Source: Gammaproteobacteria bacterium RIFCSPHIGHO2_12_FULL_38_11 (GTDB taxonomy: Bacteria > Pseudomonadota > Gammaproteobacteria > Coxiellales > Coxiellaceae). From it: a stretch of DNA of 54,174 nt. A program made the position numbers and the translations under genes. The stretch lies in the NCBI GenBank assembly GCA_001801515.1, contig MGXX01000080.1:1-54174 (forward strand), in the 5' to 3' direction. The notes beneath the pieces were generated by a model, which saw only the letters and a list, made by a program, of their open reading frames with translations, was not told the origin of the DNA and searched no databases. This document shows, one piece after another, positions 1-51,066 of this stretch (position 1 is the stretch's first letter; each line of letters starts with the position of its first letter).

Positions 1-113
1 TTTCTGTGATAATTATATTGCTTATCGCAAGATTCGCACGCACCCTTCCAGGTGCGTTTCTGTGATAATTATATTGCTTATCGCAAGATTCGCACGCACT
101 CTTCCGGGCGCGT
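1..113. repeat. Two tandem copies of the 56-bp palindromic repeat
   Basis: Two adjacent units start at positions 1 and 57, a spacing of exactly 56 bp. Each contains the core TTTCTGTGATAATTATATTG, then CTTATCGCAAGATTCGCACG and a GC-rich palindromic end (CGCACNCTTCCNGGNGCG). The same unit recurs at 1888-1944 and in a five-copy array at 13161-13420. The second unit runs into the 3' end of mutY on the minus strand, where it provides the last codons and the stop. The array may continue to the left of the window. Confidence 0.9.
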
Positions 114-3969: not shown

Positions 3970-6900
3970 ATGCCTGATAATATTAAAATATCTTCAAAAG
4001 AATTGGCAAGGAAAAAAAATATCCTTGGGTATTTTAAAGATTGCACGACTGAATGGAAACTTCTCAAAGACGTCCGTTTTGCGCGCGTGATTGAGGTAAC
4101 AGGTGGAGACGATCATCAGGTTACTGCAGATAAGGAAAAATATTATAAACAAAATGTTTATCTGCTGTCCGATATTGAATCTTATGTGGCAAAGCGAGAT
4201 GAATTTAATGCCTCACCGTCTAATATCGGGTATTCTGTTCAAATTAAACTAAAAAGTGTTGATCTTCACATTAATCTAGGTGTAATTTTTCCTTTTATAA
4301 ACCCAGAGATTATTGTTTCTGAAAATGATCTTATGGCAGCATATAATGCTGATAACCCTTCGAATAAGTTAGAAAACCCTGACGCTATTCTTCAATTTGC
4401 AAAATTAATTAATGAAAAAAATACGGAAGCTATTAAGTTCCTTAAAAAATTTCGTCAAAAACAAATTATTAAAACCACTGTTGAATATAGCAGCGCGCCC
4501 AGTTCGTTTCATAATGGCGGACGGCCAATTGATACAAATCAGTTAATTGCGCTAATCAAATTGTTCGTAGAAGCGCATAGTGATCAACAAAATGTTCTTC
4601 GTTTAAATGATGACGATTGCCTGGATTTAAAAGCCGCATATATTTTAAATTTAAATCTAGATCAATTATTTAATGCACTTCATGATAGATTTCCGAGTGA
4701 CACTAAAAAACTGGAATTTCTTGTTAATCATATTATATTTCCTTCTGGTGATGGAAAAAAATTGAATGGTACCGTTAAACTTCCAGCAACAGTTGAAATG
4801 CTAATTGATGATAACCAGAAAAAAAGTATTGATAAAAATTTAAATTCTGTTTTAGAGTCTGTCTTAGCGAGAAAAAAAGCTGAGGATAAGGCAGAGAAAG
4901 AAAGACAAGCGAAAAAAGAAGCCGAACAGGCTATCGTAAAAACTGAAGAAGAAAACAAAAAAAATATATTAATAAAAAAATTAACAGACATTTTAAAATT
5001 GCCAGAATATGTTTCAGTTGTTCTCAATCCTATCTTGTCTGATTTTGAATTAAAAATTAAAAAAGGAGAAGTGGAAATTGTATTGGGTACGTTAAAGCAT
5101 GAAGAAGAACCTGCGACTACCCATAAATTATTTTTCAATAATTCCGAATTAACCTGTTTTTCAGCTGTGTTCGTGAAAAGACCATCTGGTATAGTACCAT
5201 CATTGTTTGATGTTCAGAAGCAAGAAAAGCTTTTATACGCGCATGTTTTCGCTTGTATGCTGGATGTAATAGAAAATGGCAACCATGATGAAATAACAAA
5301 AATAATGCTTGTAAAATCATTATTTTCGTACATTGAAAAAACAAATTTAACACTTGATGAAAATCAGCTTGTGAAAATCCTCCCATTTTTCACCTTGCTT
5401 GTACAAAAAGGAGGGCGCTTTACACTTTCTGCTGATAACGCATTAGCCTTAATGAATAAGGCTAGATTTACTGATACCGAAAAAGTAGGGTTGTCTAAAA
5501 TTGCGATTGACAATAAAACGCCAGATCGAAAAAATAAACCAATATCAGGGGATGATTTCTTAAAATTAATTGAGTTCGGATTTGGTGGTTTTCATAATAT
5601 GGATATCGGCGAGCCAACAAAACAATATACGCCGGAAATTCTGAAAAAAATACGTGATTTTAGACCATCTGAATTTGATAAATGTAAAGCAAAGGGTAGT
5701 GCTTCTAAAAAGCACCTTGTTGGGTTACCAAGTATTTCTACCATTTCAAATATTATAACAAATGAAAACGAAATAGTGCTGGCCTATAATCGCTGGGTTG
5801 ATATATTTAACAAATCAAATAAAGATATTAAGCAACATGTTAGTAACTTGATTACTATGCTGCGTCAAAAAGAGGTTGCGACATTCCTATTATATTTTCG
5901 AATTGAAAAAATTTTGCAAAACAATAATTGTACAACCGGTATTTTTTCGAGCATTCTAGATGAGTGTAAACAAAGAAATAAAGTGTATTTGAATTATCAA
6001 AATGTTTCTTTTGAAAATAATTTTGATTTTAAAAAAATTTTTAATGTGCCATCAAGCCCAACAGGTACGCCTCTAAGAGAGAACGTATCGACCAGTCCTA
6101 AAATCAAAACTAAAGCGCCTACAATACACGAACAACTTAACTATTTATTGTCCTTAAATTTATATGGCGCAAAATTTAACGGTGTGATATTACCTGATTT
6201 TATTTTGAACCTAATGGATGACAAGGAAAAAACAGCGGTAAAATTAGCTGGGAAAATCAGTGGTGATAAATTACATGATATTTTTGTTAAAGCAAAAAAA
6301 TCATTTGATAAATTAAATAAAAACAAATTTTCTGAATTTTTATTGCCAGATAAAAAAATGTCGCCTGAAACATTTAATAAATTGTCTAATGATAATCAAG
6401 ATACTTTTGATAGAGGCGGGCCAGCAATTTGTGCACGTGGCATTTATGTTTCGGGTAATGCAGAGCTTGTTTTTCAAAATGACGTTCGCTTTGATTATCG
6501 TAATGCACAATTTGAAACTTTAACCGTTAAACGCAATGGGTTGTTGAGTGATGCACGCTTAAAAGGCATTAAAGCCAAGCAACTGATTATTGAAGAGGGT
6601 ATTGAACTTACTGATAAGAAAAAACTAAACCCAATTAGCCTTAAAAATTTCAATGAGATTGTTTATAACGTAACACTCAAACAAAAAAATAAAGCTAATT
6701 TGCCTGTGAACATGCTTATTAAAGATGGCTCAGTTATATTTTCATCTAGCGCTAATACTTTTAATTTACCATCACCTAATGAGATTGATGCATTATACGC
6801 ACAAATTTCTAAGGAATATCACACCGTTCGGCAATTGCCTGGCGAAGCGTTTGGTTTTGGCAGAATAAATGCTTTAAATAAAGCAAAGCCAGCACTTTCG

Positions 6901-13135: not shown

Positions 13136-13420
13136 CAGAAACTTAAGCCTGGAAGGGTGCGTTTCGGTGATGATCATATTGCTTATCGCGAGATTTGCAC
13201 GCACCCTTCCGGGCGCGTTTCGGTGATGATTATATTGTTTGTCGCGTGATTCGCACGCACCCTGCCGGGCGCATTTCGGTGATGATCATATTGCTTGTCG
13301 CGTGATTCGCACGCACCCTTCCGGGCGCGTTTCGGTGATGATCATATTGCTTATCGCGAGATTTGCACGCACCCTTCCGGGCGCGTTTCGGTGATGATTA
13401 TATTGTTTGTCGCGAGGTAG
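13136..13420. repeat. Five-copy 56-bp tandem repeat array
   Basis: Units start at 13161, 13217, 13273, 13329 and 13385, each exactly 56 bp apart. Each has GTTTCGGTGATGATCATATT, then GCTTATCGCGAGATTTGCAC and GCACCCTTCCGGGCGC, with a few substitutions. Copies 1 and 4 are closest to each other, as are 2 and 5, suggesting multi-unit duplication. The left edge (13136-13160) is an inverted end (GGAAGGGTGC). There are no unique spacers, so this is not a CRISPR array. It fills the gap between the LysR gene and the yefM promoter. Confidence 0.93.
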
Positions 13421-47948: not shown

Positions 47949-48011
<63 letters not shown>

Positions 48012-48023
<12 letters not shown>

Positions 48024-48041
48024 GATTTTTCAAGGTGTTAC
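48012..48041 (+). repeat. Direct repeat, left attachment site (attL-like)
   Basis: The 30-bp sequence CCCGGGGAGCCAGATTTTTC followed by AAGGTGTTAC spans the tRNA-Asn 3' end and is repeated exactly at 50231-50260. It is typical of integration at a tRNA gene that preserves the tRNA. Confidence 0.85.
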
Positions 48042-48345
48042 ACCATTTATATTTTCCTTAAAAATCCATTGTGGGGATTTTGTGTGTGTTTTTAAGCAGC
48101 CGATTTTAATAGCATTAATGTGGGTGGGCGTGCTTGTTTATCACAAGTAATCTTCCCGTGATTTAGTGGACACCGATTTGTTAGAATATGAATAACAAAG
48201 AGGTGAATGAAATGCCTGCTATCAGTATAAATAACAATATGGTTTTTTCCGCTAACCGCTTTCACAAATTGTTTCACAATGACTTCCCGCTATTATAATG
48301 GTTTAAATTTTTAATTTAATTACCGTGTTTTTAAATTGTTTTTTG
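48042..48345. other. Gene-poor region at the start of the tRNA-Asn island
   Basis: About 300 bp without a convincing gene. A 28-codon frame (48212-48298) follows AGAGGTGAATGAA and could be a gene remnant, and the surrounding sequence is AT-rich. No integrase fragment was recognised. Confidence 0.4.
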
Positions 48346-49407
48346 TCACAATAAATAACGATTGATATTTTTTTCAAGTTGCAAAATTGTCTCGAGTATC
48401 ATGGAAAAATCTACTGCTTCACCAAAAATCATTCCGGCCATTGCTTTATAATCCTGTTTTAACGGCTCCATCATCGCCGGTGTTGGCATGATTGTGAATG
48501 AGCCGGGATGCGCACATGATAAGTCTAAATCTTTGCTATTGAAAAATAATTGCGCGTGCTGCGCACAATCAAAAGCCAAGTCGCGATTATTTTGTGCGCG
48601 CTTACCTACTGATGAATGCATTAATTTGTAAACATCATAGTAATGACGAGAAATGCGGTGTCCTTGTTGACGTAATTGCCCACGATGATCATGCCAGCGA
48701 CGCAAGCCATGCAAAATAATCACTTTATCCCAGAAAGTCCGTTCGGCATTAATGGTAACAATATTAGAAATAGTTAAGCTCGCCCTAAAAACGTCTTCAG
48801 CCAAATATGGTTTAATGCTGACCAATTGATGCGGTTCTAAAGCTGATTTTGCTCCCGCTTCGATTTTGACTGCAGATTTCACATAGGGGTCAACTTCTGT
48901 ATTAACCGTTGGATAATTTACGAGAAGCGTTTGCTCTGCAGGATCATCGGGATCTGAAATAACAGGATCATTTATGCAGGGGGTATTTGCGTCACGTAAC
49001 AATGCTGAGATCTGCCGATTGAGGCGATTTTTTAGTGGGCCCTGAATATATTCCTGACAAGCTTGTTTAATAGCATTTAATCGAATGCGCTGTTGTTTTC
49101 CTGAAAGAGATATCATGTTTTCAATATCAACATGCTGTCCAATATCTTCTCGAAACACTGTAATATCAAGATCTTCCGAAAAGCGAGAAATTAAGCCATA
49201 TGCTTTCGATAATGATGTTCCGCCCTTGAATAATAATCTGGGCTCGCTTGGATCGCGACCATTAAACAAAACATCAAGCACCAAACATACCCAAAAATCT
49301 TTTTCCACGTTTTGCAACGTTGTTCCCAATCGATTGGCAGTGGCAAAAAATAAATCTCGCCTGTCGTTTTGACTGGATGAGAGAATGCGAATAAACTCTG
49401 TATTCAT
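48346..49407 (-). CDS. AbiEii-family nucleotidyltransferase toxin
   Basis: The 353-residue protein has the AbiEii/MenT nucleotidyltransferase signature LLFKGGTSLSKAYGLISRFS with EDLDI (residues about 59-85), the second conserved ERTFWDKVIILHGL, and SRHYYDVYKLM. Such toxins transfer nucleotides, for example to tRNA acceptor ends, and act in abortive infection against phage. It overlaps the antitoxin gene by 4 bp (ATGA). All motifs look intact. It lies inside the tRNA-Asn island. Confidence 0.92.
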   Translation of the reverse strand: MNTEFIRILSSSQNDRRDLFFATANRLGTTLQNVEKDFWVCLVLDVLFNGRDPSEPRLLFKGGTSLSKAYGLISRFSEDLDITVFREDIGQHVDIENMISLSGKQQRIRLNAIKQACQEYIQGPLKNRLNRQISALLRDANTPCINDPVISDPDDPAEQTLLVNYPTVNTEVDPYVKSAVKIEAGAKSALEPHQLVSIKPYLAEDVFRASLTISNIVTINAERTFWDKVIILHGLRRWHDHRGQLRQQGHRISRHYYDVYKLMHSSVGKRAQNNRDLAFDCAQHAQLFFNSKDLDLSCAHPGSFTIMPTPAMMEPLKQDYKAMAGMIFGEAVDFSMILETILQLEKNINRYLL

Positions 49408-50057
49408 GATATTCCTATTGCTTTTTTAAATAATTCTTGTATCCATTTTTGCATCCATATTGGCATCAAATGCAATCCATTTTTTAAGTCTTTGCAAATA
49501 ACATCACCTTGTTTTGCATCTTGTAAAATGCGAATTAATTTTTTTTGTATACTTTTTTGTTCTGTTTTTGAAAGTCCTGCAAAAGAATCATGTAGCCAGT
49601 AAAGCGCTTGCACAATTCGCATAGCAGGTCGTCCCGCCCAATAAAGTTTGCCGGGGGTGGTTAATTTGAATTGGATGGTAAGATTTCCCAATTTTATGGG
49701 TCGCAAGCGACCATCTGTGTGTACCACGACTTTCCCAAGTACGGCATGTGTTAACCCCAAATCATTTGCAGCAGTTAGTCCATCCAATAATATTCGTATT
49801 GAATCGCGACGAGCAATGGCATCGATTATTTTTTGATAACTTGGGACAAAAAGTTGGCCGGTGAGCGTATTGATTTTCGGTCGATCATAGAGCCCGCGGC
49901 CAATGCGGCGTAATTCATGATGGATGGCGAGTCGTTGTAGTGCCTTATCTATTGCATCACGCGTACCCACATCCACAAAGTCTGTCGGAGTCCAGACATT
50001 TCCCTTATCAGCCTTATTAATGCGTTGCATGATGAGTGATTTCAGTGCGGTAGCCAT
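49404..50057 (-). CDS. AbiEi-like (DUF6088) antitoxin and regulator
   Basis: The 217-residue protein has an N-terminal winged helix (NVWTPTDFVDVGTRDAIDKA, LRRIGRGLYDRPKI) and a C-terminal domain, as in type IV antitoxins that repress their own operon. I prefer the ATG at 50057, after GTGAG; the in-frame ATG at 50072 lies only about 10 nt from the predicted transcription start. It is immediately upstream of the toxin, the standard AbiE order. Confidence 0.88.
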   Translation of the reverse strand: MATALKSLIMQRINKADKGNVWTPTDFVDVGTRDAIDKALQRLAIHHELRRIGRGLYDRPKINTLTGQLFVPSYQKIIDAIARRDSIRILLDGLTAANDLGLTHAVLGKVVVHTDGRLRPIKLGNLTIQFKLTTPGKLYWAGRPAMRIVQALYWLHDSFAGLSKTEQKSIQKKLIRILQDAKQGDVICKDLKNGLHLMPIWMQKWIQELFKKAIGIS

Positions 50058-50087
50058 AACGCTCACGTTCATTTATTGTCTTAAAAT

Positions 50088-50116
50088 AGTATACACTTTT
50101 CGGACAACAATACCAA
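50088..50116 (-). promoter_or_regulatory. Promoter of the AbiE-type operon
   Basis: On the minus strand TTGGTA (50111-50116), a 17-bp spacer and TATACT (50088-50093) lie just before the antitoxin gene. Confidence 0.6.
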
Positions 50117-50213
50117 ATAGAAAATCAGCCTGCTGGTATCTATCACACTGTGTCATTATTGTGACGTACTGTGCCGAGTTTGAGTATAATTGTGACTGTG
50201 TTAAACCGTTTTT

Positions 50214-50256
50214 CACCTTGAAAAATCCGGCCCGGGGAGCCAGATTTTTCAAGGTG
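50214..50256. repeat. Hairpin spanning the right attachment site
   Basis: CACCTTGAAAAATC (50214-50227) and its exact complement GATTTTTCAAGGTG (50243-50256) flank 15 bp. The right arm is part of the 30-bp duplicated tRNA-end sequence; the left arm is present only at this end of the island. Confidence 0.8.
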
Positions 50257-50260
50257 TTAC
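50231..50260 (+). repeat. Direct repeat, right attachment site (attR-like)
   Basis: An exact 30-bp copy of 48012-48041, comprising the last 12 bases of tRNA-Asn and the 18 bases after it. With the left copy it bounds a 2.2-kb segment containing only the AbiE-type pair. Confidence 0.85.
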
Positions 50261-50322: not shown

Positions 50323-51066
50323 CTAACTTGATCGTCTCGCATAAACAATAATTCCACCAATTTTTTTCTCATGAATAGCATCCAGTAGCTTGTTGTACCC
50401 GCTATACATCGTATTCACAAGATGATGATCAAACTGACTCAACAAAACTTCTTTTTTCGCATCAAACTTATTGAGCAACATAACGTAGCATTTTTCAAAA
50501 TAATCACTGATATCAATATGCGATTGATATTGCCAACCTGACTCCAATAGATTTTTTTTAAACGTATCCAAATATATCGGATGAAATGGCAGTGATGATG
50601 AAAATGGATTTTCAGTCTGTCCTGCATGTGGCTGTGAATAATCAAATACAATAAGCTCTGCATTTTTATCAGCAATTTTGGATAGTTCCATCAACAATTC
50701 TTTTTGTTTTTCAAAACAGAAAAAAGAGCACATGGCAATCATCAGTTGGAATTTTTGATTTAAAAAATCTGCAGCATGTAATACGTCAGCTGCAATAAAA
50801 TGACTATTTGGATATTTTTTTGTAGCATACTGAATATGATCAGAATCTATATCAATACCTATAACGTTTCCAAACCGATTGTTATTTAAATAATCTGTAG
50901 TTCCGCCTAAACCAGAGCCAATATCCAATATATTTTGGTCATTATCTTTTTTTACATTCTTCATCATCAAATCAATTGCTTCAATTTCACCGGGATGTGT
51001 AAAGTCACCATCGCGGAGCGCTGCCAGAATTTTGTGGACTGTGTGTCGTGTTTGAATGTTTAACAT
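50323..51066 (-). CDS. SAM-dependent methyltransferase
   Basis: The 247-residue protein is a class I methyltransferase with motif I NILDIGSGLGGTTDYL, the acidic ribose-binding NVIGIDIDSDHIQYA, and FIAADVLHAADF. The overall form resembles phosphoethanolamine or sterol/ubiquinone-type small-molecule methyltransferases; the substrate cannot be read. It is 26 bp downstream of the M19 gene pair on the same strand and may be co-transcribed with it. Confidence 0.88.
   Translation of the reverse strand: MLNIQTRHTVHKILAALRDGDFTHPGEIEAIDLMMKNVKKDNDQNILDIGSGLGGTTDYLNNNRFGNVIGIDIDSDHIQYATKKYPNSHFIAADVLHAADFLNQKFQLMIAMCSFFCFEKQKELLMELSKIADKNAELIVFDYSQPHAGQTENPFSSSLPFHPIYLDTFKKNLLESGWQYQSHIDISDYFEKCYVMLLNKFDAKKEVLLSQFDHHLVNTMYSGYNKLLDAIHEKKIGGIIVYARRSS

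What the first reader, a model, noticed from the sequence alone, without database searches (positions are those of the whole stretch)
48012..50260. Miniature defence island: AbiE-type pair bounded by a 30-bp tRNA-Asn repeat, no integrase
The exact duplication of the tRNA-Asn 3' end brackets only 2.2 kb holding an intact AbiEi/AbiEii-like pair. There is no integrase, so the island is either a decayed remnant or a satellite mobilised by another element's integrase. Abortive-infection genes at a tRNA integration spot suggest phage defence, and the site may be a defence hotspot in relatives.
Basis: partly seen in the sequence, partly recalled or inferred. Interest (0 to 1): 0.75.

Follow-up and report, generated by a model that had tools for sequence, protein, structure and literature searches.

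The report
Toxin-antitoxin mini-island beside tRNA gene
A two-gene toxin-antitoxin module sits in a tiny stretch of DNA that was apparently inserted at the end of a tRNA gene by an enzyme that is no longer nearby; this is a small, stripped-down example of a known kind of mobile island, useful because island finders that require that enzyme pass such cases over.

Summary
A 30-nt exact repeat (48012-48041, 50231-50260) brackets 2.2 kb at a tRNA-Asn gene. Inside is an overlapping AbiEi (DUF6088)/AbiEii pair and no integrase. Only 12 of the 30 nt belong to the tRNA. The right-hand copy lies in a 43-nt near-perfect palindrome (18-nt arms, 7-nt centre CCGGGGA), as expected of a tyrosine-recombinase core site. 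Best reading: an integrase-less tRNA island with both ends kept (CIME-like), carrying a type IV toxin-antitoxin pair with conserved catalytic residues and an operator-like palindrome. No close relative of the window was found, so empty sites could not be checked. In Legionellales, 10 of 15 AbiE loci have a displaced tRNA 3' fragment in the stretch examined, against 0 of 20 arbitrary stretches; but 9 of 20 HsdM loci do too, and only 1 of 18 AbiE stretches from the wider class. So these are tRNA islands, not an AbiE-specific hotspot. Two further integrase-less AbiE cassettes lie between tRNA-Met 3' copies, one with a truncated integrase just outside. Phage defence is untested; island persistence is an equal candidate. 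Ordinary in kind, unusually minimal.

The parts
47949..48023 (+). tRNA-Asn (gtt), intact; insertion target
   Evidence: ARAGORN, Rfam RF00005 67.1 bits
48012..48041 (+). left copy of the 30-nt repeat (attL core plus right arm): 12 nt of tRNA 3' end, 18 nt beyond
48013..48019 (+). predicted 7-nt crossover, left copy (CCGGGGA)
   Evidence: inference: identical in both copies and centre of the palindrome in the right copy (I15)
48346..49407 (-). AbiEii nucleotidyltransferase toxin, 353 aa
   Evidence: PF08843 5e-35, PADLOC 1e-98; residues 62-68 (GGTSLSK), D79, D81 invariant in the 27 sequences aligned; AlphaFold mean pLDDT 90.3, five solved structures at E below 0.001, all MenT4/MenT3/TglT, TM-score 0.41-0.51
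49404..50072 (-). AbiEi antitoxin/regulator, 222 aa, DUF6088; the true start may be the second Met, about 50057
   Evidence: PF19570 2e-34, PADLOC 1e-89, aligned with 8 other AbiEi; start choice is inference from operator spacing
50076..50107 (-). 32-nt operator-like palindrome, TTGTCCGA-N16-TAAGACAA on the minus strand (right half degenerate against TCGGACAA)
   Evidence: 14 of 16 half-site letters; 14-16 of 16 within about 120 nt before abiEi in 12 of 12 loci; 0 of 600 first-order resamples reach 14
50214..50256 (.). 43-nt palindrome, arms 50214-50231 and 50239-50256 (17 of 18 paired), centre CCGGGGA: proposed attR core with inverted recombinase arms
   Evidence: (I15)
50231..50260 (+). right copy of the 30-nt repeat (displaced tRNA-Asn 3' end)

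Best explanation
The segment from about 48020 to 50238 is an integrative island that a tyrosine recombinase once inserted into the 3' end of the tRNA-Asn gene and that now lacks an integrase: both ends kept, mobility genes gone, i.e. CIME-like. Crossover probably lies in the 7-nt CCGGGGA of the acceptor stem. The tRNA was rebuilt at the left end; its displaced 3' fragment marks the right end. The cargo is a type IV toxin-antitoxin pair: AbiEi is expected to bind the palindrome in front of its own gene and repress the operon; AbiEii is a MenT-like nucleotidyltransferase expected to disable tRNAs and stop growth when AbiEi falls. Shown: repeat, palindrome, both genes, conserved residues, operator-like palindrome, no integrase between the repeats. 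Inferred: recombinase origin, loss of an integrase, crossover point, repression, toxin action. Not known: whether the island can still move with a helper integrase, and whether it serves phage defence or its own persistence.
For: One dispersed 30-mer repeat in 54 kb, one copy ending a tRNA gene; palindromic right end with the same 7-nt centre in both copies; TCAAN4TTAC at +7 after the tRNA end, with the repeat stopping there, as in the tRNA-Met repeat of L175 (62 of 63 nt alike; motif frequency 7.4e-5 per position in this window); a tRNA-Met integrase family with that motif beside its att site in 23 of 30 loci; integrase-less AbiE cassettes between tRNA-Met 3' copies in L174 and L175, with a truncated integrase just outside in L175; an integrase-bearing counterpart in L205; AbiE anatomy.
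Against: No empty or differently filled tRNA-Asn site was seen; no close relative found. GC (39.0 vs 37.6%) and codon usage of the pair for its gene lengths are unremarkable, so composition does not show foreign origin. The left arm of the right-hand site is inverted, whereas six tRNA-Met copies have a direct TCAAN4TTA at -72, so the recombinase is not shown to be of that family. The +7 motif was noticed after the fact and is found at only 6 of the 17 other tRNA ends listed (2 more at +16/+17, 9 without). The exact 23-nt core had no match in IMG/VR.
Confidence: 0.72

Rival explanations
1. It never had an integrase of its own: a minimal satellite cassette (att sites plus AbiE) that resident integrases insert and remove in trans, with AbiE as its persistence device.
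For: Three integrase-less AbiE cassettes with tRNA 3' copies at both ends (window, L174, L175); in L175 and L176 an integrase piece lies just outside the tRNA copy; AbiE within 500 bp of a tRNA 3' end in 6 of 15 Legionellales loci versus 2 of 20 for HsdM (Fisher p 0.051).
Against: L205 has integrase and AbiE in one bracket; on contig G058:C7 the integrase beside tRNA-Met is about 40 kb from the AbiE pair and its tRNA copy, so loss of the middle could explain the small ones; the outside integrases of L175 and L176 are themselves truncated (open frames of 201 and 189 aa where relatives have about 379).
Confidence: 0.2
2. The right-hand hairpin is a transcription terminator (for the methyltransferase gene at 50323-51066) and the repeat is a by-product of some other duplication, not site-specific integration.
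For: A terminator-like match on the minus strand at 50244-50231 (4 such sites in the region, 2.2 expected).
Against: A terminator does not explain 12 nt of tRNA 3' end in register with 18 nt of tRNA downstream sequence, nor three copies of the arm.
Confidence: 0.1
3. Assembly artefact: two loci joined at the repeat.
For: No genome is held for the window and read coverage cannot be seen.
Against: A 30-nt repeat is shorter than usual read lengths (general knowledge); tRNA-bracketed AbiE pairs occur in other assemblies.
Confidence: 0.04

Closest known systems
CIME (cis-mobilizable element)
   Same: Integration and transfer genes absent, both att-like ends kept, at a tRNA 3' end
   Different: Only 2.2 kb and two genes; no remnant of mobility genes seen; no tandem partner in the window; mobilisation not shown
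AbiE type IV toxin-antitoxin systems (Streptococcus, Serratia; MenAT of mycobacteria)
   Same: Overlapping antitoxin-toxin operon, nucleotidyltransferase toxin with conserved residues, palindrome before the antitoxin gene
   Different: Antitoxin is of the DUF6088 type; no activity measured; no solved relative found by sequence at E below 0.05
tRNA-targeted genomic islands as catalogued by Islander
   Same: Intact tRNA plus displaced 3' fragment in the same orientation, 2.2 kb apart
   Different: No integrase, so the catalogue's integrase filter would reject it (PMC4383910, search-strategy section read)
Integrase-bearing tRNA-Met island with AbiE (L205)
   Same: tRNA bracket, AbiE towards the distal tRNA copy
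   Different: L205 has an arm-binding tyrosine integrase, DUF3987 and other genes; the window's bracket has none

Membership tests
AbiE type IV toxin-antitoxin | AbiEii nucleotidyltransferase domain with conserved residues | tested here: met
   PF08843 5e-35; GGTSLSK, D79, D81 invariant in 27 aligned sequences, window included; nearest solved folds MenT4, MenT3, TglT at E 5.8e-5 to 6.2e-4, TM-score 0.41-0.51
AbiE type IV toxin-antitoxin | cognate AbiEi antitoxin upstream in one operon | tested here: met
   DUF6088/PADLOC AbiEi, 4-nt overlap
AbiE type IV toxin-antitoxin | inverted repeats before abiEi for autoregulation | tested here: met
   32-nt palindrome in 12 of 12 loci, one half degenerate in the window; binding itself not testable here
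AbiE type IV toxin-antitoxin | toxicity, neutralisation, phage protection | not testable with these tools
   needs experiment
CIME | attL and attR present | tested here: met
   30-nt repeat at the tRNA end and at the right end; that they are att sites is inference
CIME | integrase and transfer genes lost | tested here: inconclusive
   none between the repeats and no integrase match in the window; absence is shown, that they were once present is not
CIME | mobilised in cis after accretion with a related element | not testable with these tools
   no tandem element was seen beside it in the window; would need a helper
Islander-type tRNA island | island contains an integrase gene | tested here: not met
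   so it is not filed as a complete island
Phage satellite (PICI/P4-like) | integrase, replication and packaging-interference genes | tested here: not met
   AbiEi and AbiEii are the only recognised genes between the repeats

The most novel reading that the evidence does not exclude
AbiE pairs act as the core of minimal, integrase-free cassettes that sit between tRNA-derived att sites and are inserted and removed by resident integrases in trans; the antitoxin, whose operator-like palindrome lies about 105-125 nt from the distal att site, influences excision, while the tRNA-targeting toxin punishes loss. (Against the gating step: in Streptococcus suis AbiEi bound oriT but not attL or attR; PMC11062541.)
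Probability: 0.17. Interest if true: 0.65.

Novelty: new member of a known kind. Interest (0 to 1): 0.38.

Why it matters
Island catalogues that demand an integrase inside the bracket, as Islander does, discard exactly this class. If integrase-free toxin-antitoxin cassettes between tRNA copies recur widely, a layer of small mobile cargo is being missed and can be searched for with displaced tRNA fragments alone. The case also separates two claims that are often merged: that a toxin-antitoxin pair lies in an island, and that it is there for phage defence rather than for the island's own persistence.

Tried and rejected
So no empty-site test was possible.

AbiE-specific tRNA hotspot: rejected as a general claim after the HsdM control (9 of 20 against 10 of 15) and the class-wide sample (1 of 18 stretches). 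The 500-bp closeness (6 of 15 against 2 of 20, p 0.051) is suggestive only: the limit was chosen after seeing distances, and HsdM usually belongs to a longer operon. The HsdM loci were the 20 best-scoring of 58 listed places. The 20 control stretches were picked by hand, not at random.

Transposon with terminal inverted repeats: considered, because the inner ends are inverted 14-mers; rejected because a third copy lies outside on the right, as an att arm would. An IS-like end suspected at about 48156 (recalled look of IS3 ends) had no plasmid match and is not claimed. Foreign composition: no signal.

Same integrase family as the Legionellales tRNA-Met integrase: kept only as a lead, since the -72 arm is missing in the window and the +7 motif also occurs at 1 of 4 tRNA genes in HsdM loci (with 1 more elsewhere; 0 of 11 fragments there, 0 of 7 genes in arbitrary and TerC loci). 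Link between toxin target (tRNA ends) and the tRNA site: no support, since restriction genes use the same kind of sites.

Full report
What is there. The tRNA-Asn gene (gtt) ends at 48023. The 30-mer CCCGGGGAGCCAGATTTTTCAAGGTGTTAC stands at 48012-48041 and again at 50231-50260 (37 nt at 92%). No other exact 30-mer is repeated in the window except at spacings of 56, 112 and 168, i.e. in the 56-bp arrays; about 8e-9 chance pairs are expected from base composition. Twelve of the 30 nt are tRNA, 18 lie beyond it. The right copy is embedded in a palindrome, 50214-50256: two 18-nt arms with 17 pairs round the 7-nt centre CCGGGGA (DNA fold -16 kcal/mol against a shuffle mean of -6.0). The arm GATTTTTCAAGGTG occurs three times in the window: after the tRNA, and on both sides of the right-hand centre.

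Cargo. Two genes on the minus strand overlap by 4 nt: AbiEi (DUF6088) and AbiEii. AbiEii keeps the residues that are invariant in 27 aligned sequences, among them GGTSLSK (62-68), D79 and D81. Its predicted structure (mean pLDDT 90.3, pTM 0.89) has five PDB matches at E below 0.001, all of them the mycobacterial toxins MenT4, MenT3 and TglT (TM-score 0.41-0.51). A 32-nt palindrome of the form TTGTCCGA-N16-TCGGACAA lies within about 120 nt before abiEi in 12 of 12 loci compared, with 14-16 of 16 half-site letters each; 0 of 600 resampled sequences reach 14. In the window it is at 50076-50107 with one degenerate half. In Serratia, passages that I read report that AbiE toxin induction upsets tRNA levels (PMC7725324). 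In Streptococcus suis, AbiEi binds palindromes in its promoter and at oriT, not at attL or attR, and helps to keep an integrative element in place (PMC11062541, abstract and passages). So persistence of the island is as good a candidate function as phage defence.

No integrase. A recombinase signature scan found none in the window, and a profile of 26 integrases found nothing better than E 0.74 among 2089 six-frame pieces, while finding integrases in L176, L170 and L171 at E 2.5e-16 or better. That profile did not list the more distant integrases of L178 or L205 at E 1e-3, so a very different integrase could be missed by it; but the ORF list shows nothing else of integrase size between the repeats.

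Relatives. No genome is held for the window and none of the loci found is close. The tRNA-Asn site itself could therefore not be compared. I turned to AbiE elsewhere. In Legionellales (the order of G001, 140 genomes searched), 15 genomes have an AbiEii relative at E 1e-20 or better. I examined one locus in each of the 15. A displaced tRNA 3' fragment (T-arm, acceptor strand and CCA, outside any complete tRNA) was found in 10 of 15, in stretches of 5 to 19 kb: L174, L175, L176, L178-L182, L204, L205. An eleventh, L173, lies 250 nt from a complete tRNA-Arg, and its contig ends 429 nt beyond the pair. The four without are a copy with internal stops (L203) and three contigs of 5.1-8.8 kb (L206-L208). 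Arbitrary stretches of the same genomes gave 0 of 20, TerC loci of other bacteria 0 of 80.

Controls against the reading. HsdM (restriction) loci in the same order gave 9 of 20 with such fragments, and 4 others hold a complete tRNA gene; so island residence is general for accessory defence genes there. Across the class, 15 of 369 genomes had AbiEii at E 1e-15, and only 1 of 18 stretches examined carried a fragment; three others held complete tRNA genes. In G199 the toxin pieces are 71 and 79% identical to the window's (82 and 48 residues), split over two contig ends, with no tRNA fragment seen.

Integrase-free cassettes elsewhere. In L175 the stretch between a tRNA-Met gene (6031-6107) and its partial copy (1018-1080, 62 of 63 nt alike) holds abiEi, abiEii and a 923-aa TOTE primase-helicase-nuclease protein, and no integrase. 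A tyrosine-integrase C-terminal piece (PF00589 3e-15, open frame 201 aa where relatives have about 379) lies just outside the copy. L174 has two tRNA-Met 3' copies (391-418, 5436-5463) round the same kind of three-gene content. In L176 a related, also truncated integrase piece lies just beyond the copy; its other boundary is not seen. L205 shows a fuller form: tRNA-Met, DUF3987 genes, a phosphoesterase, AbiE, an arm-binding tyrosine integrase, displaced tRNA fragment.

A shared att signature. Searching with the L175 integrase piece found relatives at E 1e-25 or better, fragments included, in 54 of 140 genomes. In the 30 loci given, 27 have a tRNA-Met gene (25) or 3' fragment (2) 80-94 nt after the integrase stop; of the 3 misses, 2 are contig ends. 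The motif TCAAN4TTAC lies there in 23 of 30. In the window TCAAGGTGTTAC starts at +7 after the tRNA end and the repeat ends with it; in L175 the repeat ends at the same place. Of the 17 other tRNA ends listed, 6 have the motif at +7 (L174 distal, both of L175, L204, the L205 fragment, and L182 at tRNA-Pro), 2 at +16 or +17 (L173, L176) and 9 not at all. In the integrase loci it is elsewhere than +7 at 21 of 24 tRNA genes and absent at 3. The motif occurs at 7.4e-5 per position in this window. Against kinship: six tRNA-Met copies have a second, direct TCAAN4TTA at -72; the window does not, having an inverted arm instead. I therefore take the signature as a lead to a related recombinase, not as proof.

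Known or new. [quoted passage not shown] The window fits, with the caveat that loss is inferred. Islander rejects brackets without an integrase and those below 2 kb (PMC4383910, search-strategy section). My searches of the paper library for AbiE with islands, att sites and tRNA, and for integrase-less islands, seen as listings apart from the papers named, did not show this arrangement described, which is weak evidence of absence. I file it as a new member of a known kind.

Verdict. Real, well bounded, and ordinary in kind; its interest is the extreme reduction, the palindromic end with a predicted 7-nt crossover, and the recurrence of integrase-free AbiE cassettes in two other genomes.

Noticed in passing
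window 1-113 and 13155-13416: A similar 56-bp unit is tandemly repeated at two distant places (2.0 and 4.7 copies).
   Followed up: no
L174:723-4906, L175:1339-5831: AbiE pair followed by a TOTE-conflict primase-helicase protein (AEP-TOTE, ResIII; DUF559 matched only in L175) inside tRNA-Met brackets: a three-gene conflict cassette.
   Followed up: partly
L237-L266: A tyrosine integrase family, up to 95% identical to the L175 piece, in 54 of 140 Legionellales genomes (fragments included), with tRNA-Met or its 3' end 80-94 nt after its stop in 27 of 30 loci.
   Followed up: partly
L165 9282-11050 and 18481-19803; L170, L171: IMG/VR contigs carry AbiEii relatives (59-64%): L165 with phage-like genes and a serine-recombinase-like ORF (both by eye), L170 and L171 about 120 nt after a tyrosine integrase.
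   Followed up: partly
L178 4979-6497: Pieces of what looks like a second AbiE pair lie outside the tRNA-Asn bracket of the first; AbiEii similarity 42% over 91 residues, AbiEi-like neighbour by eye with no Pfam match.
   Followed up: no
plasmids collection: AbiEii relatives below 60% identity on 163 plasmid records (Agrobacterium 35, Bradyrhizobium 31, Rhizobium 15 and others), 106 predicted conjugative.
   Followed up: no
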